From the NCBI GenBank assembly GCA_013288825.1, contig JABDBC010000020.1, positions 1 to 37,566 of the forward strand: 37,566 nt of DNA, written 5' to 3'. Numbering within the stretch: position 1 is the stretch's first letter; each line of letters begins with the position of its first letter. This DNA comes from Chlamydiota bacterium (GTDB taxonomy: Bacteria > Chlamydiota > Chlamydiia > Chlamydiales > Parachlamydiaceae). A program made the position numbers and the translations under genes. The notes under the pieces were generated by a model. It did not search any database, had not been told where the DNA came from, and saw nothing but the letters and a program-made list of their open reading frames with translations. Below, in pieces: positions 7,196-28,252 of the stretch.

Positions 7196-7216
7196 ATGAT
7201 TCCTCAAGGAAGAGCG

Positions 7217-8798: not shown

Positions 8799-9930
8799 GG
8801 AACACCTCAGCAGCATCTAATTTGCGTATGCGATTAATGCCAAGAAGAGCGGCAAATAGACAAATGATGATAACGGCAACAAAAGTAATTGCTAAAATTT
8901 CATAAGGCATAAAGAATGGAAAGCCATCTTGTGAGCAGGCAAGGTGTCCAAAAATTGATGTAATGCCAACGCCTATTCCATACCCGATAAAGCCAACAAA
9001 AAAAGCTTGTAAAAGGAGCATTCTGCACAATAACCCAGTCCCTGCTCCCATAGCTTTCAAAGCACCCAAATGTTTTAAATTTTCTAGAACAAAGGAGTAG
9101 AAGGTTTGACCCGCCACTGCGATTCCAACCAAAAAACCAGTAATAATGGTGATGCTGAATGAAAAAGGGATGCCGGTATTTTTAAATATCCAATTTATTG
9201 TACTCCAAAAAAATTGGTCTGAAGTAAATGCTTTCAAGCCAGTTTCTTTGTTGATTTTCTCTATTACTTGATCGATATTCTTTCCTTCTGCTGGTGCTGC
9301 AAGAATGAATGCGAGGCTTTTTCGCTTCGCAGGAGCTATTTGGACTGCTTGGTTAAATGTTGTGTAGATGTATGGGTAGCCAAAAAAAGAGCGTTCTGCT
9401 TTGCAAATTCCAACGATTCTAACATCATGATCATTAATGTCCAGATGGTCTCCGATACTGATTGGCTGATCCCTGCCTACGCTAAATTGTTCTACAGCAA
9501 CCTGATCAATGATCACTGCGCCGTCTTGCCAAATGTCATGGATATCTCCTTCTAACATACGTGAGGGGGCTCCTATTAGTGTGGCTGTATCTAATCCCAT
9601 CAATTGGATAGCTTTGAAGGCTCCTCCCTCTAAACGAGCTTGCTGAATAGAAAAAAAAAGAGGCACGGCCCATTGCACTCCTTCTACCGAGCGAATCCGA
9701 GGCAGGTCGGTATCGAGAAGAGGAAGAATATCGCCTGGCTGTTCTACGAGAGGATCGACAACCCAAATGGGAACTTGCGTATTGCGAATGGTGGCCGTTG
9801 ACCAGCGGAGAAGGCCGAAGAAAATTGAGCCTTGATGGGTCATTAAAAGGGATGCAAAGCATAAAGCAGACACAAGCAGCAGGTATTTAGCTCGATCTCC
9901 TATTAGCATTTTGAATGCCATCCAATACAT
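8791..9930 (-). CDS. FtsX/DevC-type ABC permease
   Basis: A 379-residue inner-membrane permease with FtsX topology. One N-terminal transmembrane segment (YLLLVSALCFASLLMTHQGSI) is followed by a periplasmic domain of about 220 residues. Three C-terminal segments follow (about 255-285, 300-330 and 345-370), ending with LGINRIRKLDAAEVFRG, the DevC/FtsX-type C-terminus. The ATG at 9930 has GGAGG 6 nt upstream; a TTG at 9933 is also in frame. It is the first gene of a four-gene operon (permease, ATPase, adaptor, outer-membrane factor). Related DevBCA-TolC systems export glycolipids in cyanobacteria, so a lipophilic cargo is reasonable. Confidence 0.9.
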   Translation of the reverse strand: MYWMAFKMLIGDRAKYLLLVSALCFASLLMTHQGSIFFGLLRWSTATIRNTQVPIWVVDPLVEQPGDILPLLDTDLPRIRSVEGVQWAVPLFFSIQQARLEGGAFKAIQLMGLDTATLIGAPSRMLEGDIHDIWQDGAVIIDQVAVEQFSVGRDQPISIGDHLDINDHDVRIVGICKAERSFFGYPYIYTTFNQAVQIAPAKRKSLAFILAAPAEGKNIDQVIEKINKETGLKAFTSDQFFWSTINWIFKNTGIPFSFSITIITGFLVGIAVAGQTFYSFVLENLKHLGALKAMGAGTGLLCRMLLLQAFFVGFIGYGIGVGITSIFGHLACSQDGFPFFMPYEILAITFVAVIIICLFAALLGINRIRKLDAAEVFRG

Positions 9931-9954
9931 CAATTGCCTCCTCGATGGAAAAAC

Positions 9955-10934: not shown

Positions 10935-12110
10935 TTAGTTGGACAACAATAAACTCACGCTAGATCCATCTAAATTGCGCGAATTGATCATCACATTCTC
11001 CAATTTCCCATCAATTGGATTGTCTAATACTAATTTCCCTACGGTAGGATGGATCAATTCTGAACTTGACCACAGCCCCCTTGGAATGGTCTGTTTCTCT
11101 AAGGATTTGACAGCGATCACTACCTGAACGGCGAAGTCAGCTGCTAGTAAACTCCCATGTAAGGGTTTTGTCGTTGTCAAATAGAGCTTCGGAGATTGTT
11201 TGAACACTTGACTAATGGCATTGTATTCGTCGTTGTCGTAGTCAGGAAGGCCTTTTGCATCAAGAAATATACAATTTACCTTTTCTGGACCTACGTTGGC
11301 ATCATCAAGACAGCTTCTCATTGCTTCAGGAAGGGACCTTGCGATTCCCATACCAGCAATTCGAGCAAGAATCTTTTGTTTTTCTGCTGCTACGGATTCC
11401 TCAGGCTCTACTGTGAAAAGACCTGCTCCCTCTCCTAACAAATAACCATCCGATTTTTGATGAAATGGCAAATATTGACCAGAGGCAGAAATCGGCTCCC
11501 TGCGAATGCAAGCATTATATACCAATGGTGATAAAGGGGCCTCAACACCTCCAACAAAGGCTCCAGGAAGATCACCTCGTCGAATTAGATGACAGGCATG
11601 TTCTAAGGCATAACCAGTGCTTAATGCATCTGCTGCGAATGTTTTGCTATAACCAGAAATTTTGTACTGAAGTGAAATTTCTCCCTGTGGTGCTGTTGGA
11701 AACCATGCTGTAGCCACATATGGGCTAAGTGCATCGAAATTATTGTTATATATCTCGTCCAATTGGGGTTCAACAAACGTCCATCCTCCTGTCAGATTGC
11801 CCAACAAAATGCCAAAATCTTCAATTTTAGCAGAATCTAAAATCAAGCGACTATGCACTTGTTGAAAAGCTTGCATAATTAGGAGTGTAAACCGATCTAA
11901 CTTTCGCAATATCCTAATGTTGATTCCATTACTTAACAGATCATCATTTATATATGCTACATTTGGTTTCCAGACAGCTGTTTCAGGCATTTGAAGATGC
12001 TTTTGGAAATTAGATGTTCCTCGAGCAATATTTTGCATCATATTTTCGATGCAACATCCTAGTGAGGTGGCAACCCCACATTCTGTAATAACTAAACGTT
12101 GTTTTGTCAT
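10935..12110 (-). CDS. Type II polyketide chain-length factor (KS-beta)
   Basis: A 391-residue thiolase-fold protein homologous to the ketosynthase encoded just upstream, with every catalytic residue lost. Where the ketosynthase has TGCTGG this protein has DALSTG (Cys to Leu). NAHGSST is replaced by DAKGLPD (His to Lys), and the second His of IGHALSAAN by Gly in LHGSLLAAD. Structural landmarks remain (GEGAGLFTVEP, GGVEAPLSPL). This is the hallmark of chain-length factors, which pair with KS-alpha and set the number of extender units. The start ATG overlaps the ketosynthase stop (ATGA). Most actinobacterial chain-length factors have Gln in place of Cys, so Leu is unusual. It is the last gene of the operon. 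Confidence 0.9.
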   Translation of the reverse strand: MTKQRLVITECGVATSLGCCIENMMQNIARGTSNFQKHLQMPETAVWKPNVAYINDDLLSNGINIRILRKLDRFTLLIMQAFQQVHSRLILDSAKIEDFGILLGNLTGGWTFVEPQLDEIYNNNFDALSPYVATAWFPTAPQGEISLQYKISGYSKTFAADALSTGYALEHACHLIRRGDLPGAFVGGVEAPLSPLVYNACIRREPISASGQYLPFHQKSDGYLLGEGAGLFTVEPEESVAAEKQKILARIAGMGIARSLPEAMRSCLDDANVGPEKVNCIFLDAKGLPDYDNDEYNAISQVFKQSPKLYLTTTKPLHGSLLAADFAVQVVIAVKSLEKQTIPRGLWSSSELIHPTVGKLVLDNPIDGKLENVMINSRNLDGSSVSLLLSN

Positions 12111-13345
12111 ATCTTTTTTAATACCAAGCTGGAGTGAATACCTGAAAAGCCACTACTGGTTTTTAACACTGTTGTGACATTCTTTTCTAAAGACTTCTTA
12201 GACACTACTGTTAATGGACAGGTGGGATCCTGAGATTCTAAATTGAGAGTAGGAGGAATTCTGCTATCTTGAATTGAAAGGACAACACTTATCAATTCAA
12301 TGCTATTGGCAGCTGAGAGAGCATGTCCAATTTGTGATTTGATCGATGTGACTGGAATTTCTTTTGCGCGTTTTCCAAATATACGGTAGAAAGCATTGCA
12401 TTCTGCAGTATCGTTTTGGGGAGTGGAAGAGCCATGAGCATTAATAAAATCCACTTCTTCGGGATCTATTTTAGCATCTTTAAGAGCCAAAAGACATGCT
12501 TTAGAGATAGATATTCCATCTTGGGGGATATCCGTCATATGGTAACAATTGTTAACACTGGCGGTTCCTCTAATTTCTGCATAAATCTTAGCATCCCTTT
12601 TTTGAGCATGATCAAAATTTTCTAAAATTAATATCCCGCATCCCTCAGCTAATACAAATCCATCGCGATCCTTATCAAACGGACGTGAGGCCTTTTGTGG
12701 ATCGTGATTCCTTTTTGAAGTCGCTCCGATTTTACCGAACGCTGCTACAACAAGAGGTGTAATAGGTGCTTCTACAGCACCAACGATGCACATATCAACA
12801 TTGCCACTTCGAATCATATGTAGACCATATCCCATGGCGTCATTCCCACCAGTGCAGCCTGTGGCTATGGTGACAGAACCACCTCGACAAGAATATTTCT
12901 GTGCAATATTTGCTGCAATGTTATTAAAAAAGAAACTGTCTTCGTAATATTGGGACTGTAAAGGGATAAATCCTATATGCCCACCTGTTTTTCTATTGCG
13001 TTCAAAAGATAGTTCCATTTGAGCAATTTCACCAATTGCAGTGGCAATAAATACTCCGCAACGATCATTAAAATTTGTGTCTAGGAGATTTGCATCTTGC
13101 AGAGCCTCTTGTACGGCCATTTCTGCAAATAAAAGATTTCTTTTCTGGATTTTTTCACCCTTATTATCGAAAGGGATAGAAACAACCCCAGCAATTTGGC
13201 TTAAATGGGGAGGGATATTAATTAAATCAGTAATTTTACGTACGCCAGAAGTACCTGACAGGCAGTTCTTCCAAAATTCAGAAACATTTTTACCTATAGG
13301 ATTAACAGTTCCTATACCTGTAACAACTGCCCTTCTTTCAGACAT
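12107..13345 (-). CDS. Type II polyketide ketosynthase (KS-alpha)
   Basis: A 412-residue beta-ketoacyl-ACP synthase. The catalytic triad is intact: Cys164 in ATGCTGGNDAMGYG, His304 in INAHGSSTPQND and His341 in SQIGHALSAANS. The TGCT context around Cys is closer to aromatic-PKS KS-alpha (TGCTSG) than to housekeeping FabF (TACAT). Other landmarks are RPFDKDRDGFVLAEGCG and EAPITPLVVAAF. The ATG at 13345 has AAAGG 6 nt upstream. It would form a heterodimer with the chain-length factor and extend malonyl units on the ACP at 16157-16873. A FabF duplicate is the alternative, but the degenerate partner and the cyclase neighbours argue against it. Confidence 0.93.
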   Translation of the reverse strand: MSERRAVVTGIGTVNPIGKNVSEFWKNCLSGTSGVRKITDLINIPPHLSQIAGVVSIPFDNKGEKIQKRNLLFAEMAVQEALQDANLLDTNFNDRCGVFIATAIGEIAQMELSFERNRKTGGHIGFIPLQSQYYEDSFFFNNIAANIAQKYSCRGGSVTIATGCTGGNDAMGYGLHMIRSGNVDMCIVGAVEAPITPLVVAAFGKIGATSKRNHDPQKASRPFDKDRDGFVLAEGCGILILENFDHAQKRDAKIYAEIRGTASVNNCYHMTDIPQDGISISKACLLALKDAKIDPEEVDFINAHGSSTPQNDTAECNAFYRIFGKRAKEIPVTSIKSQIGHALSAANSIELISVVLSIQDSRIPPTLNLESQDPTCPLTVVSKKSLEKNVTTVLKTSSGFSGIHSSLVLKKI

Positions 13346-13354
13346 AACCATCCT

Positions 13355-14128
13355 TTAGTTTATTTCATCATTGAGTAACGCAACAACGCGCGCAGGGCCA
13401 CCTCCACATCCTTTTAATTTGATTGGAAAACAAGAGACCTTGAATTTCTTCTTAGTCGGCAATGCTTCCAAATTTGTTAATCGTTCTATTTGACAATATT
13501 TTCGTCTTCTTCCAAGCATATGACAGGGCCATAATGAATGTTGATTCCCAGTTTTCTGAAATGCTTGAATCATCTTGTGGAAGGGGGCATCAAATCCAAA
13601 ACTATCGACTCCGATCACCTTTATGCCGCAGTCTAGCAACCAATCTGTTGCCTCGAGACTAATTCCACGAAAATGTGTAAAATATTCTCGGCGCCCCCAA
13701 AGCTTATTTGCTCCTGTATTGATAAAGACTATGTCTCCCTTATTTAAAGACAATCCTTGGATGGTCTGTGCTTGTTGGAGCTCTTTAGCAGACACTGTTT
13801 CCTCGCTCTGTTTCAGAGAACAATCTAACACCAAGGCAGTTCCAAAAAACCATTCTAGAGGAAGTTCATCAATCGATTGAGCCCTTACTCCTTCACAGAG
13901 AGGTCCATAATGTAATGGGGCATCTACATGGGTTCCTGAATGAGATGTCAATTTTATGCGTTCAAGATTCACTGCTAAACCATCAGGAAAACTATCTGCA
14001 TTGATTCCGCTTTCCTTTAATAAAAGAAGCGCCCCCTGCTGATGGTCGATATATTCAAATTGTACTGGCTCAGGTTCTGAAATTGATGTTTCTAAAGGAA
14101 CTGAAAGATCAATGCACTGCAGTTGCAT
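13355..14128 (-). CDS. Metal-dependent cyclase, kynurenine-formamidase-like family
   Basis: A protein of about 257 residues of the 'putative cyclase' family. It carries the metal-site motif HSGTHVDAPLHYG and further family landmarks (DLSVPLE at the N-terminus, GDIVFINTGANKLWG, GVDSFGFDAP, IKLKGCGGGPARVVAL at the end). Members hydrolyse formyl-kynurenine, or are found in aromatic polyketide clusters as later-ring cyclases. Given the neighbours, a ring-closing or hydrolytic step is likely. I chose the ATG at 14128, which has GAGGTG close upstream. The longer frame to 14185 runs inside the flavoprotein gene without a ribosome site. It overlaps the flavoprotein gene by 20 nt. Confidence 0.85.
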   Translation of the reverse strand: MQLQCIDLSVPLETSISEPEPVQFEYIDHQQGALLLLKESGINADSFPDGLAVNLERIKLTSHSGTHVDAPLHYGPLCEGVRAQSIDELPLEWFFGTALVLDCSLKQSEETVSAKELQQAQTIQGLSLNKGDIVFINTGANKLWGRREYFTHFRGISLEATDWLLDCGIKVIGVDSFGFDAPFHKMIQAFQKTGNQHSLWPCHMLGRRRKYCQIERLTNLEALPTKKKFKVSCFPIKLKGCGGGPARVVALLNDEIN

Positions 14129-15299
14129 ATGCACCTCGAGCAACTTGTATTCCATTACTATATGAACAACCATCGCGAACGACACTTGTAAAAGCTTGGG
14201 TTAGCATAAGAGGTATTTGCAAAGGCAAATGAGGATCGGCAAATAATTTTAAGATGTCATTCCATAGGGATTTTTCTATGTTCTGGTAAACGCTAGATTG
14301 TTGATTTTTTAACCAGTTCTGTATTGCCTTGGTGTAGGATTCAGGAGTATTTTGCACGATTGAGGCAGCAGCTTGTTCCGCAGAGAAGAAGGCAAAATCA
14401 ATTCCGGGGGAAAAAAATGGATCCAGGAAGGCTGCAGCATCACCCACTAAGCGGTAGCAAGATCCAGCAGGTTCAACACATACTCTTCGATAGTTTTTTG
14501 CCGGAATGATAGGCAAGACTCTTTTTGCTCCTTCGAGCATGTTTGTTAGATATGAAGAGAGTGCAATTGTATTGCTAAAAAGCTTGTCTGATGGGGCGCT
14601 GGGATCTAAAGAATTTTCTGCAAGCACGCATCCAATACTGATCCGATTTTTCGAAAGAGGAATAGAGAAGAGATACCCCCCTTCTATAGCTATAATCCTC
14701 ATTTCGTGGATTACCTCTGATGGCAATTCAAAATGGCTAAAAAGGGCTATACGTTGATCTAATTTTTGCTCTTCAACAGGCAATTCTAAGTGTTGAGATA
14801 GGTACGCCGTCTTACCCGTTGCATCTACTATAATGGGCGCTACTAATTCGTAAGAACAACTCTGACTATCATAGGATATGTTGACTGAGATTGACGATAA
14901 TTCGCAGCTTTTGATAATGCTTTTAGGGAAGAATTCAACACCTGAATCTAATGCAGCTTCTAATAGGACTTGGTCAAATAGATTACGATCAACATGAACA
15001 AGGTCGCCGTATTCAACTTCATTGCTTGAGGATTTAACTTTGATTTCAATAGTTTGTTGTCCGCTTGCCGAACAGAAAACACAACTACTGTTTTTTTTCA
15101 GTGCAGAGAGCAGTCGTTCTCCCACCTTAGGGTTACCCATATTACATGAAGAGTTGTAAATCCATGATTCAGGCAAATGATAAGCAGTGCCGGCATCGCG
15201 AGAGATCATTGCGACTTTAAATCCCTTCTGAGACAGATATGCAGAGGTCGCACATCCACTTATACCAGAACCTAAAACAATTACATCTATCTCTCGCAT
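14109..15299 (-). CDS. FAD-dependent oxidoreductase of the halogenase/geranylgeranyl-reductase type
   Basis: A 396-residue flavoprotein. The N-terminal dinucleotide-binding motif is VLGSGISGCATSAYL (residues 8-22). The second FAD motif VGDAAAFLDPFFSPG (285-299) is the form found in tryptophan-halogenase-like enzymes and geranylgeranyl-reductase-like enzymes. The halogenase signature WxWxIP is not present; the matching place reads GGYLFSIPL (207-215). It is therefore more likely a monooxygenase or reductase than a halogenase. AGGTG lies 4 nt before the ATG. The gene overlaps its upstream neighbour by 13 nt. In the pathway it would hydroxylate, oxidise or reduce the polyketide. Confidence 0.85.
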   Translation of the reverse strand: MREIDVIVLGSGISGCATSAYLSQKGFKVAMISRDAGTAYHLPESWIYNSSCNMGNPKVGERLLSALKKNSSCVFCSASGQQTIEIKVKSSSNEVEYGDLVHVDRNLFDQVLLEAALDSGVEFFPKSIIKSCELSSISVNISYDSQSCSYELVAPIIVDATGKTAYLSQHLELPVEEQKLDQRIALFSHFELPSEVIHEMRIIAIEGGYLFSIPLSKNRISIGCVLAENSLDPSAPSDKLFSNTIALSSYLTNMLEGAKRVLPIIPAKNYRRVCVEPAGSCYRLVGDAAAFLDPFFSPGIDFAFFSAEQAAASIVQNTPESYTKAIQNWLKNQQSSVYQNIEKSLWNDILKLFADPHLPLQIPLMLTQAFTSVVRDGCSYSNGIQVARGAYATAVH

Positions 15300-15751
15300 G
15301 AATCACCTAATTTTTGAAGTAGATCTTGTAGCCTAGTCTGAAAGTCTTGTGAAAATTGAATAAGCCTCATGCTGTATTCTTCAGATTCTTCCAGTTCGGC
15401 TTGCGGTAATTCAAAATACCTGACTGCTGTAAGCTCTGTGAGGGTATCTGTTAAAACTGCAAATTGCCATAATCCCTGATGGATCGATGTCGGTGGTGGT
15501 GGTTGTGGCGAGAAAAAGGCAACATCAAGATTTGGGTTACAAAAGCGTATGGTGCGAACCCAGCTATTCCGTCCTTGCCAGTCGACAAGCATTTTAAAGT
15601 CTTGGTGCAAACCATCGTCATACAAAATTTCAATTTTCTGAAGGGGATTCCAAAATGAGGCCCAGCTGCTGATATCCCAAATACGCTTATGAGCAATGTT
15701 CAGAGGTACTTGAATCTTTTTTTTTACGATGATTTTATGCACTTTTTTCAA
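15287..15751 (-). CDS. SRPBCC aromatase/cyclase-like protein
   Basis: A 154-residue SRPBCC protein. Key segments are VPLNIAHKRIWDISSWASFW, ILYDDGLHQDFKMLV, RFCNPNLDVAFFSPQPPPP and HQGLWQF. The same blocks recur in the next upstream gene and in the C-terminal half of the ACP fusion protein, so these three are paralogues. The frame has no early ATG: the start is a TTG at 15751, which overlaps the preceding gene by 17 nt, or a GTG at 15742. Both have weak ribosome sites, so expression probably relies on coupling. The role is likely regiospecific folding or aromatisation of the polyketide chain. Confidence 0.82.
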   Translation of the reverse strand: MKKVHKIIVKKKIQVPLNIAHKRIWDISSWASFWNPLQKIEILYDDGLHQDFKMLVDWQGRNSWVRTIRFCNPNLDVAFFSPQPPPPTSIHQGLWQFAVLTDTLTELTAVRYFELPQAELEESEEYSMRLIQFSQDFQTRLQDLLQKLGDSCER

Positions 15752-16160
15752 TCCAGTTTTTGAAGGATTTTAGATTATGCTCTAGAAACTTCTCTAAGAG
15801 AGTAATGTCAAAACCATACCCCTGTTTGATTTCAAATTCCCTAATTGCCTGTACGGATGTCATTTCGCCTTCTGATGAAAAAGTCCAGATCCCAGACATT
15901 TTGCTTAGGAGAGGCGGAGGCTTTGTTTGAAAAATTTCTATTGAATGGCAGGGATAACAAAACCGCACAGAGTGTACTGTTTCGTCTTTATCTCCACGCT
16001 TTACTGTCATATCGAATTCTTGATGGCGCCCGTCGTCGTAAAAAATGGAAATGGCGCGCACATCTGTCAGGACATCTTTCCAACGTCGTATATCTGCGTA
16101 TACGCCGTAAACAACTTCTCGGGGTGCACAGATTTCAATCTGCTTCATGACTTTCATCAT
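15735..16160 (-). CDS. SRPBCC aromatase/cyclase-like protein
   Basis: A 141-residue SRPBCC domain. Its landmarks are CAPREVVYGVYADIRRW, IFYDDGRHQEFDMTV, VRFCYPCHSIEIFQTKPPP and SGIWTF, paralogous to its two neighbours. I place the start at the ATG at 16160. It overlaps the stop of the ACP fusion gene (ATGATGA) and has GGAG 5 nt upstream. An earlier ATG at 16184 lies inside the upstream gene. The pocket-forming fold and the cluster context point to an aromatase/cyclase. No catalytic residue can be named from sequence alone. Confidence 0.85.
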   Translation of the reverse strand: MMKVMKQIEICAPREVVYGVYADIRRWKDVLTDVRAISIFYDDGRHQEFDMTVKRGDKDETVHSVRFCYPCHSIEIFQTKPPPLLSKMSGIWTFSSEGEMTSVQAIREFEIKQGYGFDITLLEKFLEHNLKSFKNWIEKSA

Positions 16161-16873
16161 GCTGTCTCCAGTAAAGCTTTCCATGTTTTGAGGGCTAGCT
16201 CAGCGTGAGCCAATAATACATTAGTGATACGCTCTTCAGTAGTTGCATTATCTTTTGCAGGAAAAAGATCATGAGCAATTTTGGGCTCCAGATTCCATTG
16301 ATGCCATGTAGTGACAATGCATCCGGTAGCTTGGTTTTTAAAAGTCCATCCCCCACAATGATGTTTGAGGAACTTTGGCGGTTTTGGTTGAAAGAAAGTG
16401 ATGCCTTCATCCGGAATGCAGCGACGTATGGAACGGACCTGGATCATGCCGCTGTCTGAGAGCACGTCCATTAAAAATTCTTGATAAATTCCATCGTTAT
16501 ATAGGGTTTCTATGCGTTTAACATGGGGAAGTTTTTCTGGCCATTTATCCATCTCATATATGGCTTGATAAGCCATCTGCGGTGAACATCGCATGCCTAT
16601 TGATGTTTCAATTTTCCCTTCAAATTTTCCCAAGGATTGAGAGGACTCCTGGGCACTCCGAATAGTTTTTATTACATCGCCAATGCTGTGCTTTTTTGAA
16701 AAGGAGCAAGCAGGCAGTTTAATCTGGAATTGCTTATCCAACATGCAAGTGAAATCGATAATTTCCTGCGAATCTAAACCAACGCCTGTCTCTCCTAAGG
16801 GGGTATTTGAATCGATGTGGGGATTCTTAATTCCTAGCCCATTCTGGATAAGTTTTTTTATCTCTTCAATCAT
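16157..16873 (-). CDS. Acyl carrier protein fused to SRPBCC cyclase domain
   Basis: A 238-residue two-domain protein. Residues of about 1-78 are an acyl carrier protein with the phosphopantetheine serine in GVGLDSQEIIDFT (Ser35). Residues of about 86-238 are an SRPBCC domain with the paralogous blocks TLYNDGIYQEFLMDV, RSIRRCIPDEGITFFQPKPP and CGGWTF. A Ser-rich linker (SAQESSQSLG) joins them. In classical type II systems the ACP is a separate small protein, so this carrier would deliver its chain to a tethered cyclase. No other ACP is present in the operon. The ATG overlaps the stop of the radical SAM gene (ATGA) and has AGGTG 6 nt upstream. Confidence 0.9.
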   Translation of the reverse strand: MIEEIKKLIQNGLGIKNPHIDSNTPLGETGVGLDSQEIIDFTCMLDKQFQIKLPACSFSKKHSIGDVIKTIRSAQESSQSLGKFEGKIETSIGMRCSPQMAYQAIYEMDKWPEKLPHVKRIETLYNDGIYQEFLMDVLSDSGMIQVRSIRRCIPDEGITFFQPKPPKFLKHHCGGWTFKNQATGCIVTTWHQWNLEPKIAHDLFPAKDNATTEERITNVLLAHAELALKTWKALLETA

Positions 16874-18294
16874 TGTACACCTACTAATTGTTCATTTGTC
16901 ATAGGTCCTAACCATTTCTCTCGGTTATCCGCCAGGAGATCAACCAAGACTACATTCATAGACCAATTTGGTTGGTCTCGAGAAACTTTATTTCCCCAAA
17001 ATTTGGGATTTACAAACTCAAGAACCACATTTAAAAACCATTCTCTACCTAAAGCTGTCATTTCCACAGCTTCTTCAGTAATATGAACGAGTCCTTTGTT
17101 TTTTAGTTTTTGGAAAATATGACCGAAATCATCAAACAATTCTGTCCCAAAACGCTCAAGATAACGCTTAAAGTACACCCTATAATATTGAAAGGTGAAC
17201 ATAATATAGCGTTCCTTATGGTTCAGTTTATCCATTTTTTCTGAAATAGTGCTGACCATATGGTTGTCGCTATTGACCGTTTCTACGTATTCATCCACGG
17301 CTTTGGAAGTCCCTAGTCTATAGTTGTCAATGAGACTATAAGCTCCTGCTCCAATTCCAAGAGTGTCGCTTACATGCTCTAAGTTGTAATCATTATAAAC
17401 ACTTCTAAATCCAGGTTTGCAAAAATGGTTATGCATATAGAGCTCAAAACCCATTTCACTAGCAATATCGCCTGCTTCTGTATACATCATTTTGACCATA
17501 GGAGACTCACGATCAATAATGTTTGGCACCTTCCCCTCTTTAATGAACTTATCTTGTGGAGTGCCCTCATGAATACGATAGAGGTAGGTTGTTAAATGGG
17601 TTATCTCAAGATCCTTTAATTTCTTTAGATCTTCTTTCCAGACCTCTAAGGTATGTCCAGGCATGTTGTACATCATGTCCAACTGTATATTGACCATACC
17701 ACGTTTCTGAAGCGCTCTTATCACCCTTTCACTGGCTTCTGCGGCATGAGGAGAGCCCACAATTTTTAATACCTCCTCATTAAATGATTGCACCCCCAGA
17801 CTAATTCGATTAATTGGGGAACTCGCTACATAATCCAACTTCGCGTCATCATAATCTCTTGCATTGCCTTCTAAGGTAATTTCAGTGTCTTTTGTCACAG
17901 GAAAAGATCCACATAAAGCCTCTAATAAACGCTTGAGATTTTCAGTTCTTAGGATAGAGCCCGTTCCACCGCCAATGTAAATAGAACGCAAGCGGCTTTT
18001 ATTCCAGCGAGGATACCCCCCCCATTTTTGGATGTCCTTAATAAGGGCATTAATATAGAGGTTTTCCTTATCTTGAGGATCGTTTTTGGTTAACAACTCT
18101 ACAAAATAAGGGCATCCTTTGCAACGCACACGGCAAAAAGGGATTGAAACGTACAGTACGTAGTCTCCACAAGGTGTTTGCAGGTCTACATGATCTCGCA
18201 AAAACGTTGTGCCATGAGGATTCGGCCACATAGCAGTAGGGTAAAATATAAAGGGTAAATAGCATTTCTCTGGATAAGGCAATTGATCACTCAT
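16870..18294 (-). CDS. HemN-like radical SAM enzyme
   Basis: A 474-residue radical SAM protein. The iron-sulfur motif CRVRCKGC (C54, C58, C61) has HemN-type CxxxCxxC spacing. The family landmarks IYIGGGTGS (about 107-115), NRISLGVQSFN and LDMMYNMPGHT follow, and a HemN-type C-terminal domain starts near residue 350. The ATG at 18294 has AGGAG 7 nt upstream. HemN-like proteins include oxygen-independent coproporphyrinogen oxidase, and also methyltransferases and cyclopropanases of natural-product pathways. In HemN itself a fourth cysteine follows the motif (CxxxCxxCxC); here the next residues are PYF. With four-nucleotide coupling to the ACP gene, a tailoring role (C-methylation, decarboxylation or ring formation) is more likely than haem synthesis. 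Confidence 0.88.
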   Translation of the reverse strand: MSDQLPYPEKCYLPFIFYPTAMWPNPHGTTFLRDHVDLQTPCGDYVLYVSIPFCRVRCKGCPYFVELLTKNDPQDKENLYINALIKDIQKWGGYPRWNKSRLRSIYIGGGTGSILRTENLKRLLEALCGSFPVTKDTEITLEGNARDYDDAKLDYVASSPINRISLGVQSFNEEVLKIVGSPHAAEASERVIRALQKRGMVNIQLDMMYNMPGHTLEVWKEDLKKLKDLEITHLTTYLYRIHEGTPQDKFIKEGKVPNIIDRESPMVKMMYTEAGDIASEMGFELYMHNHFCKPGFRSVYNDYNLEHVSDTLGIGAGAYSLIDNYRLGTSKAVDEYVETVNSDNHMVSTISEKMDKLNHKERYIMFTFQYYRVYFKRYLERFGTELFDDFGHIFQKLKNKGLVHITEEAVEMTALGREWFLNVVLEFVNPKFWGNKVSRDQPNWSMNVVLVDLLADNREKWLGPMTNEQLVGVQ

Positions 18295-18331
18295 TCTCAA
18301 TCTCCTAGATTAGATATTTATGCAAACTGTG

Positions 18332-18841
18332 TTATACCAACGTCTTTGAAGCAATCGTTCTTTCAGATGGCAAAAAATGAGGAACCGCTGCTGGATCAAA
18401 GAAAATTCCTACCATATCCTTGTAAAGAATCGTAAAATCTTGACGCTTCATCTCAAAAAAACCATAGCGAAAAACCATGCCCCAACTTCTTTCTTTACCT
18501 TGAGTAAAAGTCAGGTCCTCTAGCAAACCTGCTATAGGAATTGGTTCACAGTCTAAATAATTGATATTGCGTCGCCAGGGGATGAATCCACCACCCATGT
18601 CAAATTGATAAACTTCGCTATCTGCAACCTGGCCAATTGAAGTGAATTTTTGACAGGGTTTGTTGCCCTGAAATGTTTCTTTAGGGGAATAATGAACAAT
18701 CCAATCGCCCTCAGCCATTCTCTTCAATGGTGAAGATTTGCCGTGGCAACTTTGAGTGATACCTGCTTTAACACCATTTCTGACGTGTTCGAATGAAACC
18801 ACGTTAACCCAGAAACGCGTTGAGTCACTTGCTTGCGACAT
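18332..18841 (-). CDS. EVE-domain protein
   Basis: A 169-residue protein made almost only of an EVE domain (RFWVNVVSFEHVRNGVKAGI, QSCHGKSSPLKRMAEGDWIVHYSP, FTSIGQVADSEVYQFDMGGGF). It is paralogous to the C-terminal half of the protein at 4842-5648. EVE domains bind modified nucleic-acid bases. It has AGGAG 7 nt before the ATG, and lies between the methyltransferase-like and radical SAM genes in the same direction with short gaps (33-37 bp), so it is co-transcribed with the polyketide enzymes. No enzymatic role in polyketide synthesis is evident. A protective or regulatory role is possible. Confidence 0.88.
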   Translation of the reverse strand: MSQASDSTRFWVNVVSFEHVRNGVKAGITQSCHGKSSPLKRMAEGDWIVHYSPKETFQGNKPCQKFTSIGQVADSEVYQFDMGGGFIPWRRNINYLDCEPIPIAGLLEDLTFTQGKERSWGMVFRYGFFEMKRQDFTILYKDMVGIFFDPAAVPHFLPSERTIASKTLV

Positions 18842-18874
18842 AAATCACTCCTGTACGGATTGTATGAAACTAAA

Positions 18875-19681
18875 TTATACTACTTCATGCTGTTCTCTTT
18901 TCTTTAAGACCTCCGGATATCCAATGAGATAGGTCACTTTGATGTGGAACTTCGAAGTGAGCTCGCCTACTTCCCATCTAAAATTTTTCCCAGATAGTTG
19001 TGAGGTCATTTCTAACCATTCTTGCTTTGTATACGTTCGAAAATTTGAGATGAGTCCATCCCAAGTGTATAGGAACGGAATGACAGGAACCAGATAGGTC
19101 CAAAAAAAACGTCCAAGTCTACGAGGGCGCACCATCAAAGAAAAAATAAGACAGGTGATCGGGGCAATAATTAATGTCATTAAAGAAATGGGTTTTCTTT
19201 CAGTAATTTCAAAAATTCCAATAGGCATTTGGGCGTTTACAGCATCTTGTAAGATGTGTTTTGCCTGTTCAGGTTGAAAGTGGTGAAAGGCTGTAAACAT
19301 AGTCCTTACCCCTTTTAGTTCCAACAGAACCTTGGTGGCATCGACTGATTGAGTGAGAGGGATAATATGAGGCTCTTTAATACTGTTGAAGGCCTCTACA
19401 TTTGGATATTTATCAGTTAAAATTAACCGAACATCTTTGCCTAAAGAGGCTGCTACCTTGGCCCGCACGCTTGGTGCAGGGCCTCCGCTTCCAGAACATA
19501 AATCCACAAGGGTGTCATGACCAGTTTCAGTAAGAACTTCTTCAAGTTTTGAAACAGTGGCATCATAGATGCCAAGAACTTTCATTTGATGTGCTAATAG
19601 ATCTGTGATGTATCTGCGAAATCTATTAGGGAGCCATTTTAAATCTTCGAATTCGAAAAGATGCAGTCTAGGTATAGCCAT
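18875..19681 (-). CDS. Class I SAM-methyltransferase-like membrane-associated protein
   Basis: A 268-residue protein. The first half carries a class I methyltransferase core: LVDLCSGSGGPAPSV as the SAM loop (about 58-72), LILTDKYPNVEAF as the acidic strand, then TAFHHFQPEQAKHILQDA. Two hydrophobic segments follow (PISLMTLIIAPITCLIFSLMV and FFWTYLVPVIPFLYTWDG), so the protein probably sits at the membrane. A C-terminal beta segment completes the fold. The ATG has GGGG 7 nt upstream. It lies second in the operon. O- or C-methylation of the polyketide is a fair inference. The lipid-like membrane segments are unusual for a soluble tailoring enzyme. Confidence 0.72.
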   Translation of the reverse strand: MAIPRLHLFEFEDLKWLPNRFRRYITDLLAHQMKVLGIYDATVSKLEEVLTETGHDTLVDLCSGSGGPAPSVRAKVAASLGKDVRLILTDKYPNVEAFNSIKEPHIIPLTQSVDATKVLLELKGVRTMFTAFHHFQPEQAKHILQDAVNAQMPIGIFEITERKPISLMTLIIAPITCLIFSLMVRPRRLGRFFWTYLVPVIPFLYTWDGLISNFRTYTKQEWLEMTSQLSGKNFRWEVGELTSKFHIKVTYLIGYPEVLKKREQHEVV

Positions 19682-19700
19682 ACAGCGCCCCTTTTTAAGA

Positions 19701-20168
19701 TCATTTTAGAGCAGGTGCCACCTTCTTTGTGGATAGCTCCTTGGCCATTTTAGCTAATGTTTTCACCGACTCTGGTAATTCTTTTTTTAGCTTCGGCAGC
19801 ATCTGTTTATTAAATATTTCTGCCACTGCAGGATTTTTAGGAGTGTATGTGAGAGTATGAGTGATTTTTACTCCCTCTTTTTGGGGGATCACTTCATGAA
19901 AAAATTGAATAGTCCCTAAGTCAAACTTGCCTTCATCTGTGAAACTCTTATTTGGCGTGCATTCGATGATTCGAATATCTAAAGGAAGGGGAGTTCCTGT
20001 AGGTTTTAGAGAGGCCTCTCCATTTTTTTGGAACTTATGCCCAGCTTTAAGCCGGCACCAGTCGATTCCATGATCCCACTCTGACCATGTTGACATATCA
20101 CTCCACAAAGCCCACACATTCTCTGGTGTAGCCTTGACTGTTTCATTATGTGAAATTTGAATCGTCAT
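19701..20168 (-). CDS. SRPBCC (polyketide cyclase/START-like) protein
   Basis: A 155-residue SRPBCC protein and the first gene of the polyketide operon. Landmarks are ETVKATPENVWALWSDMSTW, SEWDHGIDW, a long beta core and a C-terminal helix LKKELPESVKTLAKMAKELS. It is closest in this window to the plus-strand pair at 10052-10931, so members of one subfamily sit at both ends of the enzyme operon. A G-rich site (GGGGG) lies 6 nt before the ATG. A TTGACA promoter lies about 60 bp upstream. The precise role is not assignable. Confidence 0.8.
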   Translation of the reverse strand: MTIQISHNETVKATPENVWALWSDMSTWSEWDHGIDWCRLKAGHKFQKNGEASLKPTGTPLPLDIRIIECTPNKSFTDEGKFDLGTIQFFHEVIPQKEGVKITHTLTYTPKNPAVAEIFNKQMLPKLKKELPESVKTLAKMAKELSTKKVAPALK

Positions 20169-23249: not shown

Positions 23250-23509
23250 TAGTGATGGACATGGCGATTTTCCGTTTGGTTTTAGGTTTCGTCAAAAACA
23301 CTATAAACAAACGCGATCGTTATGTCCCTTTATTTTTTAATAGTCATAAGTTTCTGATTTCTTCCCTAGGGAAAAAGAAGAATTCTGCGTTCTTCCCCTT
23401 GCGGTCCGAATTGCTGTCTGATGGTAGTGGTAAGTAATTTATATTTGCGGATAAATTCTTAAAGGCGTATTCTCTGGTTTTTCTAAAAAAACACATGCAA
23501 AAGGTATTT

Positions 23510-23755
23510 ATGGTAACACCTATAGGCCCCCAATTCCAGAATTTTTTTTTCCCTGAAGAGAAACATGCCGAAGATCCATATGAGATGGATATAGTAATTA
23601 AAGAGGACCTCCTTGATGTAAATAAAGAAGTTCCAAGGACAGACCACAACTGTACTATGCAATGCTCTTACCGATGCTCTTGCCCTTGTGGGACAGCTGG
23701 ATGTGTAACAGCAGGTTGTAGAGTTACAGAGTCGGGCAGTAATTGCATCTGTTGA
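23510..23755 (+). CDS. lanA: Class I lanthipeptide precursor peptide
   Basis: An 81-residue precursor if the ATG at 23510 is used (AAGG 5 nt upstream); an ATG at 23495 would add five residues. The leader of 43 residues is acidic, contains EDLLDV in the place of the class I FNLD-type LanB-binding box, and ends with EVPR. That resembles the nisin leader end (SPR), where a subtilisin-like protease cuts. The following 38-residue core holds nine Cys and nine Ser/Thr, including CSCPCGTAGCVTAGC and a SGSNCIC end. The stop overlaps the LanC start (TGATG). The equal Cys and Ser/Thr counts would allow many (methyl)lanthionine rings. I recognise no known lantibiotic core here. Confidence 0.88.
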   Translation: MVTPIGPQFQNFFFPEEKHAEDPYEMDIVIKEDLLDVNKEVPRTDHNCTMQCSYRCSCPCGTAGCVTAGCRVTESGSNCIC

Positions 23756-25098
23756 TGAAACACAATTCTAGTGCAAGATACGATATAGCTTTAGACGTTG
23801 CCGACAGATTAGCAAGGACTTGTGTTACCAAGGAAGTCTCTTTATCTCTCAGTAATTCGAATTCTAACCAACTAAACCAATATAGTGCTTTTCGGGAAAG
23901 TGTATCACTTGCAGGAGGTTATCCTGGCCTCCTCTTGCTTTTCTTAGCCCTGCAAAAAAGAGAACTTTCTGGTAGTGTTTGGGATAACGCTATCCATCAA
24001 TGCGTCATGAAAATCAAAGAGATAGTCGAGAGAAATGGTCTTTCTGATCTTTCTTTATTTGGTGGGGTGACGGGAATCTGCTTCGCACTCGAGCTAGCAG
24101 CTGAAAAGGAGGGGCGATATACACGAATGTTCCAAACCTTACAAAATTTTCTTTTGCAGAAGGTGAGAAAAGATTTAATAGATCCTCTCTTTTCAAACGT
24201 TAATAACAACTGTCCATCCTTTTCGAGACTTTACGATGCGATACAGGGCGTTAGTGGAATAGGTAGATACGCCTTAAAAAATCTTTCATTGCCTCCTTTT
24301 CACAGCCTGGCTATTGATATTGCTAAAACTCTTGTTTTATTCTGTCTTCCTCTTACAATAGATGGAAAACAGGTTCCTGGCTGGTATCTTCCTGCTACTG
24401 ATCCCTTAAATAAAAAACATCACATCGTAGATGGCCAAAAAGGTAATTTTAATCTAGGACTTGCTCATGGAATAACAGGTGTTTTGGCTTATTTGTCAAT
24501 CGCTGCTTTAAATGGGGTTATTGTTGATAAACAGCTCGACACAATGCGTCTTATTGCTGGTTGGTTGCGAGAAAAGGGCGATAGGCAATGGCCAAGTTCT
24601 ATTTCGTGGCAAGAAGAGGTAGAAGATCTCGCAACTCCAAAAAAGCCATCACGAGATGCATGGTGCTATGGAGTACCGGGCATTGCCAGAACTCTTTTCC
24701 TAACAGGTAAAGCTCTTGGAGATGAAAGTCTAAAAGATTTTGCTCTCGCTTCGTTTCAGGAAATCTTCACAAGACCAAGAGCTGAATGGCAAATTCCCGG
24801 TCCTGGACTATGCCATGGAATTGCAGGACTACTTCTGATTACGAATGAAATGGCTAAGGAAAACAGAATCAAATGGCTTCATGATCAAGTTGCTCAACTA
24901 GAAGCACTACTCATTTCTCAATATGATGAGAGCTCGATTTTTGGATTTCGAGACATCGAAGTAGATATCAATGGAAATTCAGTCCTAGTAGATAAAGCTG
25001 GTTGGCTCGAAGGGTCTGCGGGGGTTGCTTTGACATTACTAACTCTTTCTGAATTGCAATCATCTACTTGGAATTTACCACTGTTAATCTATGCATAA
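23755..25098 (+). CDS. lanC: Lanthionine synthetase C-like cyclase (LanC)
   Basis: A 447-residue LanC. The zinc ligands are present: Cys304 in RDAWCYGVPG, and Cys353 and His354 in LCHGIAG. The catalytic His238 (GLAHGITGVL) and the Arg300 before WCYG, matching the NisC active site, are also there. Repeated Gly-rich turns (SLAGGYPG, SLFGGVTG, IQGVSGIG, WLEGSAGVAL) mark the alpha/alpha toroid. It would add Cys thiols to dehydrated Ser/Thr in the precursor. The ATG at 23755 shares its A with the precursor stop; a TTG at 23743 is also in frame. There is no clear ribosome site, so translation probably restarts after the precursor. The stop overlaps LanB by 8 nt. Confidence 0.95.
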   Translation: MKHNSSARYDIALDVADRLARTCVTKEVSLSLSNSNSNQLNQYSAFRESVSLAGGYPGLLLLFLALQKRELSGSVWDNAIHQCVMKIKEIVERNGLSDLSLFGGVTGICFALELAAEKEGRYTRMFQTLQNFLLQKVRKDLIDPLFSNVNNNCPSFSRLYDAIQGVSGIGRYALKNLSLPPFHSLAIDIAKTLVLFCLPLTIDGKQVPGWYLPATDPLNKKHHIVDGQKGNFNLGLAHGITGVLAYLSIAALNGVIVDKQLDTMRLIAGWLREKGDRQWPSSISWQEEVEDLATPKKPSRDAWCYGVPGIARTLFLTGKALGDESLKDFALASFQEIFTRPRAEWQIPGPGLCHGIAGLLLITNEMAKENRIKWLHDQVAQLEALLISQYDESSIFGFRDIEVDINGNSVLVDKAGWLEGSAGVALTLLTLSELQSSTWNLPLLIYA

Positions 25099-28000
25099 TA
25101 ATCTCTTTATACCTGCATCTTTTTTTCTTTTGAGGGTCCCTTCTTGGTCTATACAAGAATACGAACATTTTGATAGTGAAGAGAGCCTACTTGCTCTTTA
25201 TAATTCAAATGAGTTGTTTAGAGAAGCAATATGCATCGCTTCGCCCTCTCTTTATCATGCCCTTCAGAATATACACAAAGACTCAAAGAAGGTGGCCAAA
25301 GGCTTGCTTAAGTATGCTTTGCGCATGAGTTCAAGAGCAACCCCTTTTGGGCTATTTTCCTTTGTTGCAAAAGGATATTTTGATCAATCAACAGAAATCG
25401 TTTTAAATGATGAAAAAATAGACAAGAAAATACGATTGGATATGGAATGGCTATATACTTATATCAAAAAACTTTACGAAGATAAGGATCGCTTTTCTTC
25501 TCTTTCCGTCCGCGCAAATCCCTTGGTTGAGCAAAGAGGAAATAGGATCTTTCTTTTGTTTTCTTTGAGAAAAACTGGAGAGTCGTATAAACAGGCTTCT
25601 ATCAAACTGACAACAATTGTTGCCAGTATTTTTTCTTTAACGAAAAAACCTATAACAATTTCTACATTATGCAATATACTCAAGGAGTCTTTTGATTTTT
25701 TTGATCTTCAAAAGACTCTAGCTTTAATCACTAACCTCTTATCCCAACAGTTCCTTCTTCCAGGAATGATTCCTTCTCTTTTAGATCCTTTACAATCTGA
25801 AAAATTTTTGTCATTGCCAGAATTTATAAAAATACAAGATCTCATGCAGATATATCTGCAAACTCCAATAGGGCAGGGAGAAGCAAGTCTTTCTCAAATA
25901 CAAAAAGAGATGGAAGGATTGATTCCAACTCAACCCTACTTACAAGTAGATGCTGTATATACCGATAAAGTTTCGATTTCGGAAAAAGTAGCAGAAGAAA
26001 TAGGAAAAGCAGCGACACTCCTTTGGAAAATTTCATCAAATCAAGCTAGATCGCCTGCACTCAGCATTTATCACGACCGATTTCTTGAAAAATATGGAAT
26101 TCACAGAACAGTCCCTTTGTTGGAAATGTTGCATGAAGAAAAAGGGTTAGGGCCTATGGAAAAACAACAACTCTCCATGCCTACGAAGAAGGCCCCTCCA
26201 TTTTCTTCACAATGGGAAAAATGGCTTTGTTGCGAATGGCAAAAATGCTTAAGAGACAAAAAAGATGAAATTGTTATTACAGAGAAAGAGGTAGATGCAC
26301 TTTTTTTACTCGCTAATGAACAGCCTCCCTCTGATGAGAGGGCTCCTCCGTCTTTTGATATTTTTTGTAAAGTTCTCAGTGCCGATTCGTCAAATCCTAA
26401 TGACTTTCGACTTCACCTCACACAGCCAGCCTGGCAAGGTTGCAGTAGTATGGGAAGATTTTTGCCTATCTTGGGAAAAGAGGCAGAACAGGAATGTCGA
26501 AACTATCTTAGCCAAGAAGAAGAATTAGATAAAGATACCATCTTCATAGAAGCTTCTACTTGGCCTTCGCTTCTACGTTCTGCCAATGTTACAATTCAAC
26601 CACGCCTTAGGAAGTGGCGCATAGATTTGGAGGAAGAGCAAAAAAATGAGGGATCTCTTGCCTTAGAGGATATTTATGTGGGGGCAACTCTTGACCGATT
26701 CTATTTAACCCTTAAAGAAGGGGGAGATGAACTTTCCTTGGTGTCTGGCAACTTGCTTAATACAATTTTCCTGCCATCCCCTTTGCGTTTTATGCGTGCG
26801 GTGACTCTGGATAGACATCAGCAACTCTACCCATTTTCTTGGGGGAAGCTTGAAGAAAAATCCATTTTCTTGCCACGCGTACGTTTTCAAAATACAATCC
26901 TTTCCCTAGCACGATGGAATGTAGATGCGATCTCTTATGCTAACAAAAAAATAGATGAAATTATTCCATTTTTCAAAGTTTGGGCCAATGAGTGGAATCT
27001 CCCTTCTCGGTTTTTTTTGGTAGAAGGTGATCAGAGGCTGCTGCTTGATCGTGAGTTGTCTTTCCATCTCCAAGAGTTAGCTAAGAGACTTGCCAAAGGG
27101 GAGTCGTTGTGCCTTGAAGAATATCTCACGGAATCTTGTGTTAAAAGCCAAAAAGGGGACCATCTTTCAGAAATTGTTATTCCATTTATGAAAAATCCCC
27201 TCAGAGCTATGCAGAAAAAATCTTTTACACCTCTCGTTCATGTCGCAACGCCATATCATACAAGAGTTTGTTTCCCTGGCAGTAGCAACTGGTTATTTGC
27301 AAAAATTTACCTCGGCAGCGAAGAGGTCAATCGATTTCTCATTGAGCGTCTTATTCCGTTTGCAGAATCACTCCAAGAGAAAAAATTGATCCTAGGCTTT
27401 TTTTTTATTCGATACCATGATCCCGATGCTCATATCCGATTTAGGATAAAAATAAATTGTTTGGAATCTCTTGGTCAATTAAACCTAGAAACCGCAGTTC
27501 CAGGTCAAGATTTTGTGTCAGAATCATTTGCGATGGGGGTCGATCATTCCCAAAGGAAGGCGACCCCCACTGCAAGTGATTACGGCTCAAAAGAGAGCGT
27601 CAATTTATCGCCTCCAACTGCCATTTCTAGATTAATGCATGCCCTCAATGTTGCAACGACACAGTGGCATACTTTAGGTTTAATACATAACTTTGTGCTC
27701 GCAGGCTACGAAAGAGAGATTGAACGTTATGGAGGTCAGGAACTTTATGAAATTGTAGAGGAACTTTTCTGTGCAGATTCCATCGCTATAGAACCCCTTC
27801 TGCGTCTTTTAGATAAAGATGAGAGCTTTCTACAGGCTGCAAGTGTGATCTCATTTCTTCGCGATCTTAATTTTAATTACATGGATATGATGACTTTTTT
27901 AAATCAATTTGGAGACGATACCCGTGAGCTCAAAGAATTTCGCAAGCACAAGGCTCGGTTAATAAGCATCATTCGTGCCTTTGAGGACGAATCTTTGCTC

Positions 28001-28252
28001 AATGATGATGCTCGGATTTTTCGCAAAATTGCTGAACAACGATCACCAGCGACCTTGAAATTATTCGAACAAGCACAAAAAACTAATTCATCAAGTTGGC
28101 TTGAAATTTGCCATAGTCTGCTACATATGCATTGCAACCGCATTGGTTGCGATACTAAAACAGAAAAACGTTCCCGTCTCTATGCTTTTCATGCTCTTAA
28201 ATCGTGGTCAAATGCCACGGGACGCTTCGCAGTCGCAGAGTCAAGCCCTTAA
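25091..28252 (+). CDS. lanB: Lantibiotic dehydratase LanB, full length
   Basis: A 1053-residue class I dehydratase. The N-terminal glutamylation domain spans roughly 1-700 and includes ALRMSSRATPFGLFSFVAKG (about 76-95); its two arginines correspond to those that bind tRNA or glutamate in NisB. The C-terminal SpaB_C elimination domain starts near 715 (HTRVCFPGSSNWLFAKIYLG) and carries LGFFFIRYHDPDAHIRFRIK at about 768-787. By family knowledge it glutamylates core Ser/Thr using glutamyl-tRNA and eliminates glutamate to give Dha/Dhb. It is a single polypeptide, unlike split LanB systems. The ATG overlaps the LanC stop by 8 nt without a clear ribosome site. The gene ends inside the debris of an opposing SDR gene. 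Confidence 0.95.
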   Translation: MHNNLFIPASFFLLRVPSWSIQEYEHFDSEESLLALYNSNELFREAICIASPSLYHALQNIHKDSKKVAKGLLKYALRMSSRATPFGLFSFVAKGYFDQSTEIVLNDEKIDKKIRLDMEWLYTYIKKLYEDKDRFSSLSVRANPLVEQRGNRIFLLFSLRKTGESYKQASIKLTTIVASIFSLTKKPITISTLCNILKESFDFFDLQKTLALITNLLSQQFLLPGMIPSLLDPLQSEKFLSLPEFIKIQDLMQIYLQTPIGQGEASLSQIQKEMEGLIPTQPYLQVDAVYTDKVSISEKVAEEIGKAATLLWKISSNQARSPALSIYHDRFLEKYGIHRTVPLLEMLHEEKGLGPMEKQQLSMPTKKAPPFSSQWEKWLCCEWQKCLRDKKDEIVITEKEVDALFLLANEQPPSDERAPPSFDIFCKVLSADSSNPNDFRLHLTQPAWQGCSSMGRFLPILGKEAEQECRNYLSQEEELDKDTIFIEASTWPSLLRSANVTIQPRLRKWRIDLEEEQKNEGSLALEDIYVGATLDRFYLTLKEGGDELSLVSGNLLNTIFLPSPLRFMRAVTLDRHQQLYPFSWGKLEEKSIFLPRVRFQNTILSLARWNVDAISYANKKIDEIIPFFKVWANEWNLPSRFFLVEGDQRLLLDRELSFHLQELAKRLAKGESLCLEEYLTESCVKSQKGDHLSEIVIPFMKNPLRAMQKKSFTPLVHVATPYHTRVCFPGSSNWLFAKIYLGSEEVNRFLIERLIPFAESLQEKKLILGFFFIRYHDPDAHIRFRIKINCLESLGQLNLETAVPGQDFVSESFAMGVDHSQRKATPTASDYGSKESVNLSPPTAISRLMHALNVATTQWHTLGLIHNFVLAGYEREIERYGGQELYEIVEELFCADSIAIEPLLRLLDKDESFLQAASVISFLRDLNFNYMDMMTFLNQFGDDTRELKEFRKHKARLISIIRAFEDESLLNDDARIFRKIAEQRSPATLKLFEQAQKTNSSSWLEICHSLLHMHCNRIGCDTKTEKRSRLYAFHALKSWSNATGRFAVAESSP

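What the first reader, a model, noticed from the sequence alone, without database searches (positions are those of the whole stretch)
23510..28252. Compact class I lanthipeptide operon with an unrecognised, Cys-dense precursor
A three-gene operon (precursor, LanC with His238/Arg300/Cys304/Cys353/His354, full-length LanB) encodes a 38-residue core with nine Cys and nine Ser/Thr. The leader ends in PR, as in nisin, and carries an EDLLD box in place of FNLD. The core, with CSCPCGTAGCVTAGC, matches no lantibiotic I know. Lanthipeptides in such a Gram-negative setting are unusual.
Basis: partly seen in the sequence, partly recalled or inferred. Interest (0 to 1): 0.93.

Follow-up and report, generated by a model that had tools for sequence, protein, structure and literature searches.

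The report
Chlamydial class I lanthipeptide operon
An environmental chlamydia (an intracellular bacterium of the Parachlamydiaceae) carries a compact, intact-looking gene set for making a heavily cross-linked lanthipeptide, one member of a system that is old and spread across this order and was first noticed in one chlamydia in 2010, so it is a good new example and not a new kind of system.

Summary
At 23495/23510-28252 lie three overlapping genes: a precursor with nine Cys, a LanC with all zinc and catalytic residues, and a full-length LanB. The host is a Parachlamydiaceae genome that has two further LanB loci and five LanC-like genes in all. LanB occurs in 26 of 234 genomes of the order, and 21 sampled LanBs of the order form one clade. 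Precursor homologues were found only in LanB-positive genomes. In the cores, Cys lies 3-5 residues after Ser/Thr more often than chance and not in the reverse order. This is what lanthionine rings predict, and it speaks against a metal-binding peptide. Chlamydial clusters of this kind have been in print since 2010 (Parachlamydia acanthamoebae), so this is a new member with a new core. An unexpected extra: this LanB carries, in frame, a 152-nt palindromic repeat of a family with hundreds of termini in related genomes. It resembles Rickettsia palindromic elements and is modelled as a disordered loop, so LanB is probably still functional. Dehydration, rings, export and activity remain untested.

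The parts
23495..23755 (+). LanA precursor (alternative start ATG 23510)
   Evidence: ORF; matched by the precursor profile (which includes it) at E 3e-11; leader box and Cys-rich core aligned with 22 others
23573..23593 (+). leader recognition box DPYEMDI (counterpart of FNLD)
   Evidence: conserved D-x-[YF]-x-[LMI]-D-[ILVF] across 23 chlamydial precursors; coordinates read from the sequence
23639..23752 (+). predicted core if cleaved after PR: TDHNCTMQCSYRCSCPCGTAGCVTAGCRVTESGSNCIC (9 Cys, 9 Ser/Thr)
   Evidence: sequence; 5 Ser/Thr with Cys at +3, shuffled mean 1.8, P 0.01; cleavage point is inferred
23755..25098 (+). LanC cyclase with zinc ligands Cys304, Cys353, His354
   Evidence: PF05147 E 7e-54; aligned with NisC and 8byk; comparison with zinc-competent and degenerate LanC
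25091..28252 (+). LanB dehydratase, glutamylation plus elimination domains
   Evidence: PF04738 E 2.3e-139, PF14028 E 1.1e-41; catalytic residues invariant; AlphaFold pLDDT 84, best PDB matches MadB, MibB, NisB
27482..27633 (+). in-frame palindromic repeat element inside lanB (residues 798 to about 848)
   Evidence: absent from the other LanB rows compared; hairpin z -5.8; multicopy family; disordered loop in the model

Best explanation
This is a class I lanthipeptide biosynthetic operon of an environmental chlamydia (Parachlamydiaceae). LanB binds the leader through the DPYEMDI box, uses glutamyl-tRNA to glutamylate Ser/Thr of the core and eliminates glutamate to give dehydroalanine and dehydrobutyrine. 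LanC, with an intact zinc site, adds the core's cysteines to them, giving several small rings of the i+3/i+4 type. The leader is then removed by a protease that is not encoded nearby, and the peptide is exported by a transporter not encoded in the operon. A role against competing bacteria inside or around the protist host is the likeliest function. Shown here: gene order, intact enzyme sites, leader box, ring-spacing signature, co-occurrence with LanB. Inferred: dehydration, ring formation, export, cleavage and antibacterial role.
For: Gene overlap A-C-B. Domain hits well over the cut-offs. LanB residues aligning with the NisB glutamylation and elimination sites are invariant in the 22-row alignment (R15, R78, R82, D117, D287, R456, H781, R783, R785, R879, H1012). 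Predicted fold matches MadB, MibB and NisB over the full length (E 8e-65 to 7e-52). LanC has H238, C304, C353, H354. Precursor homologues appear in 15 LanB-positive genomes and, but for one weak match inside a 517-aa ORF (E 0.0076), in none of the 208 LanB-negative ones. In 23 cores Cys is enriched at +3, +4 and +5 after Ser/Thr (65, 48, 45 against 34.9, 33.7, 32.6) and not in the reverse direction. The 21 chlamydial-order LanBs sampled form one clade, 100/100.
Against: No LanT or LanP in the operon; no S8 peptidase found in this genome. The LanB elimination domain carries a repeat-derived insertion of about 51 residues right after the strand with H781/R783/R785. No expression or chemical data. 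The first 17 core residues hold 5 Cys but only 4 Ser/Thr upstream of the fifth, so not every Cys can be in a conventional ring.
Confidence: 0.88

Rival explanations
1. The operon is a decaying relic: the repeat inserted into the elimination domain disabled LanB, and the other two LanB loci of the genome do the work.
For: The insertion sits just after the catalytic strand and is absent from every other LanB compared. The genome has two further LanB loci.
Against: The reading frame is intact over 1053 codons. The inserted copy is 152 nt, 15 nt shorter than the 167-nt norm, so its length change kept the frame. All catalytic residues are kept. The insert is modelled as a disordered loop between strand 781-788 and helix 841-861, with the rest confident. 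LanC and the precursor are intact.
Confidence: 0.1
2. The small ORF is a Cys-rich metal-binding peptide unrelated to the two enzymes.
For: Nine Cys in 38 residues, with CxCxC spacing.
Against: A leader box shared with precursors beside LanB in many genomes. Ser/Thr-to-Cys spacing enriched in one direction only. Stop and start codons of precursor and lanC overlap. Homologues absent from LanB-negative genomes.
Confidence: 0.03
3. The product is made as described but acts on the eukaryotic host or as a signal, not against bacteria.
For: Obligate intracellular life of the group (established knowledge); no immunity genes such as LanFEG found beside the operon.
Against: Nothing specific; some chlamydial precursors of the same system carry CTPGC, a lipid II-binding motif of nisin-like lantibiotics.
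Confidence: 0.25

Closest known systems
Parachlamydia acanthamoebae Hall's coccus LanA-LanC-LanB cluster (pah_c028o029-031; PMC3091789, 2010)
   Same: Same phylum, same gene set; the locus-tag numbering implies the same order A-C-B
   Different: Precursor sequence not compared here letter by letter; the window's LanB has a repeat insertion
Other Chlamydiales LanB loci (e.g. L043, L045, L050, L069, L070)
   Same: One LanB clade with 100/100 support; the leader box and LanA/LanC/LanB content where a precursor was recognised, e.g. L043, L045, L050
   Different: Cores differ almost completely; LanB identity 47% at most
MadB (PDB 9g04/9g05, Clostridium maddingley)
   Same: Best solved relative of the LanB by sequence (E 7e-81) and by fold
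   Different: Different phylum; about 24% identity; no repeat insertion
Nisin system (NisA/NisB/NisC)
   Same: LanB and LanC active-site residues; an F/Y-x-L/M-D box in the leader
   Different: No LanT, LanP or immunity genes here; core unrelated; box is YEMDI
Rickettsia palindromic elements (RPE; reviewed in PMC10969869) for the element inside lanB
   Same: About 150-nt palindrome that inserts in frame into protein genes and encodes a conserved peptide
   Different: Different phylum; sequence kinship not tested; no Chlamydia mention in that review

Membership tests
Class I lanthipeptide system | Full-length LanB with glutamylation and elimination domains | tested here: met
   PF04738 and PF14028 over the cut-offs; fold match to MadB, MibB, NisB
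Class I lanthipeptide system | LanB catalytic residues | tested here: met
   Residues aligned to NisB R83, R87, T89, D121, D299, R784, R786, R826, H961 are kept (the roles of the NisB residues are from general knowledge)
Class I lanthipeptide system | Separate zinc LanC with Cys, Cys, His ligands | tested here: met
   C304, C353, H354 aligned with NisC
Class I lanthipeptide system | Precursor with FNLD-type leader box | tested here: met
   DPYEMDI, conserved as D-x-[YF]-x-[LMI]-D-[ILVF] in relatives; a D-L-D motif is common in LanA leaders (PMC3091789)
Class I lanthipeptide system | Core with Ser/Thr placed N-terminal to Cys at ring spacing | tested here: met
   +3/+4/+5 enrichment over 23 cores; window alone P 0.01 at +3
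Class I lanthipeptide system | Lanthionine actually formed | not testable with these tools
   needs expression and mass spectrometry
Nisin-type cluster | LanT, LanP and immunity genes in the cluster | tested here: not met
   none among the adjacent genes; no S8 peptidase found in the genome
Rickettsia palindromic element (for the insert in lanB) | Multicopy palindrome inserted in frame in protein genes, with a conserved encoded peptide | tested here: met
   it works like an RPE
Rickettsia palindromic element (for the insert in lanB) | Sequence kinship with the RPE families | not tested
   RPE sequences were not compared

The most novel reading that the evidence does not exclude
Environmental chlamydiae host an RPE-like family of mobile palindromes that insert in frame into protein genes, and here one has become a translated loop of a working lanthipeptide dehydratase, within an old, diversified chlamydial lanthipeptide system.
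Probability: 0.6. Interest if true: 0.72.

Novelty: new member of a known kind. Interest (0 to 1): 0.5.

Why it matters
It shows that class I lanthipeptides are a standing trait of environmental chlamydiae and not a single transfer: 26 of 234 genomes of the order, one LanB clade in the sample, at least 23 different precursors, three loci in this genome alone. It gives the leader box and a set of undescribed Cys-dense cores that can be expressed in E. coli. Such peptides are candidates for the unexplained protection that some chlamydial symbionts give their amoebae (suggested for secondary metabolites in PMC9666466 and for lantibiotics in PMC11317633). The repeat inside lanB offers a test of how in-frame selfish DNA is tolerated by an enzyme.

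Tried and rejected
EDLLD as leader box: rejected because relatives align on the preceding DPYEMDI. A metal-binding peptide: rejected on spacing and co-occurrence. Recent transfer from Firmicutes: not seen; LanBs of the order form one clade in the sample, although an older transfer stays open. First genome-contig scan with the single LanB gave nothing; the alignment-based scan worked. Promoter and terminator scans were no better than shuffles. Rfam gave nothing for the repeat. Precursors were not recognised beside LanB in L044, L052, L055, L057, L058, L059, L064 and L067. No published description of the chlamydial repeat was found with three paper searches, which is weak evidence of absence.

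Full report
WHAT IS THERE. The window is contig 20 of a 2.6 Mb, 141-contig genome. Named relatives of its LanB, found with an alignment-based scan of genome contigs, include Candidatus Protochlamydia sp. and several 'Parachlamydiaceae bacterium' and 'Chlamydiae bacterium' assemblies, so the host is an environmental chlamydia, most likely of the Parachlamydiaceae. The three genes overlap: precursor stop and lanC start share TGATG at 23753-23757, and lanB starts 8 bases before lanC ends. The core has 38 residues with nine Cys and nine Ser/Thr if cleavage is after PR.

ENZYMES. LanB scores far above the cut-offs for both dehydratase domains. Against NisB, the arginines, the threonine and the aspartates of the glutamylation site and the H-x-R-x-R, E-R-Y-G-G and H-x-H-x-N-R motifs of the elimination domain are all present, and most of them are invariant in the 22-row alignment with other phyla. 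The AlphaFold model (mean pLDDT 84) matches MadB, MibB and NisB over the whole length. LanC keeps its zinc ligands.

PRECURSOR. Pfam gives only one sub-threshold match and NCBIfam none. Loci from 26 LanB-positive genomes yielded small ORFs beside LanB/LanC that share one leader feature, D-x-[YF]-x-[LMI]-D-[ILVF], followed by a Cys-rich tail. In the fetched loci 18 ORFs fit box plus tail near LanB, none in the other 210 kb, and 0.45 per shuffled set. A profile of the precursors finds matches in 16 genomes: 15 are LanB-positive, and the sixteenth is a weak match (E 0.0076) inside a 517-aa ORF. Part of this is circular, since most profile members were picked beside LanB; the absence from the 208 LanB-negative genomes is not.

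RING SPACING. A metal-binding peptide and a lanthionine peptide make different predictions. Over 23 cores, Cys follows Ser/Thr at +3, +4 and +5 more often than in shuffled cores (65, 48, 45 against 34.9, 33.7, 32.6), while the reverse offsets are not significantly above chance and -4 is depleted. The window core alone has five Ser/Thr with Cys at +3 against a shuffled mean of 1.8 (P 0.01), and three more at +4. One reading is T1-C5, T6-C9, S10-C13, S14-C17, T19-C22, T24-C27, S32-C36 and S34-C38, with C15 left over; this ring map is inference. The P values treat the cores as independent, although some are related.

DISTRIBUTION AND PRIOR ART. The genome has three LanB and five LanC-like genes. 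The 21 LanBs of the order that were put in a tree with nine from other phyla form one group with full support, and the window's falls in an eight-row chlamydial set (100/100). A LanA, LanC, LanB cluster was reported in Parachlamydia acanthamoebae in 2010 (PMC3091789), a lanthionine synthetase in Candidatus Algichlamydia in 2024 (PMC11317633), and RiPP-like clusters in Chlamydiae in 2022 (PMC9666466). The kind is therefore known; the core, the leader box across the order, and the extent are what this adds.

MISSING PARTS. No transporter, leader peptidase or immunity gene is adjacent, and no S8 peptidase was found in the genome, which is 92% complete. Another chlamydial locus, L046, has an ABC transporter next to its LanC. 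Export and cleavage here are unassigned.

THE INSERT IN LANB. Compared with the other LanB rows (11 in the first alignment, 21 in the second, with some overlap between them), the window LanB alone has about 51 extra residues after the strand HIRFRIK. The DNA is an imperfect palindrome at 27482-27633 with a fold z-score of -5.8. Its ends, AACCTAGAAACNGCAGTT, recur in the genome as inverted pairs. In 39 genomes of the family the end occurs 294 times in one, 88 in another and 30 in a third, with a reversed-pattern control of 0 or 1. The normal length is 167 nt; the window copy is 15 nt shorter, which keeps the frame. Translated in one frame it gives NLETAV...TAVSR. A profile of that peptide finds 150 open copies in one genome (the number scored was capped) and 90 in another, some inside ORFs of several hundred to over 3,000 residues. 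In one relative a protein with dehydroquinase and shikimate dehydrogenase domains is interrupted twice, in frame. This works like the Rickettsia palindromic elements (PMC10969869); kinship was not tested. Whether frame is kept more often than chance was not measured. In the LanB model the insert is a disordered loop, so a working enzyme is likely but unproven.

VERDICT. A real, intact-looking class I lanthipeptide operon, ordinary in mechanism, in a phylum where such systems are little studied; new member of a known kind. The repeat is the more surprising part and deserves its own study.

Noticed in passing
window 27482-27633; L150, L154, L199, L200, L202, L204, L207: Multicopy palindromic element of about 167 nt in Parachlamydiaceae, often inside open reading frames with a conserved encoded peptide NLETAV...TAVSR; resembles Rickettsia palindromic elements. 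A shikimate-pathway protein of one relative (L207:481-2262) carries two copies in frame.
   Followed up: partly
L010 13879-14097, 13201-13794, 7417-13191; L063; L064: Loci with LanB plus a LanD-like flavoprotein and LanC-like proteins that have lost zinc ligands. In L010 and L063 the precursor has a single C-terminal Cys preceded by S-x4, suggesting an aminovinyl-cysteine, linaridin-like product; no precursor was recognised in L064.
   Followed up: partly
L009 7892-9211; L054 12705-14063; L048 4807-6102; L056 6780-8138: A second LanC-like protein without zinc ligands accompanies a zinc-competent LanC in several chlamydial clusters; its role is unknown.
   Followed up: no
L061 6284-6502 and L056 6298-6531: Precursors with SLCTPGCGNTGTGNSFCC and GCTPGCGQTGTGNSFCCTCK, resembling lipid II-binding lantibiotics of the microbisporicin type (resemblance from memory).
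   Followed up: no
window 10935-20168: Neighbouring set with two ketosynthases, a PF04199 cyclase, a halogenase-like flavoprotein, a radical SAM protein and polyketide-cyclase-like proteins: a type II polyketide-like cluster beside MacB/OEP efflux genes at 5768-9933.
   Followed up: partly
L159 about 1501-1832 (C88) and L165 862-1194 (C35): Near-perfect hairpins of about 330 nt with ends AACCTARAAACGGCGATT, apparently a second palindromic family in the same genome.
   Followed up: no
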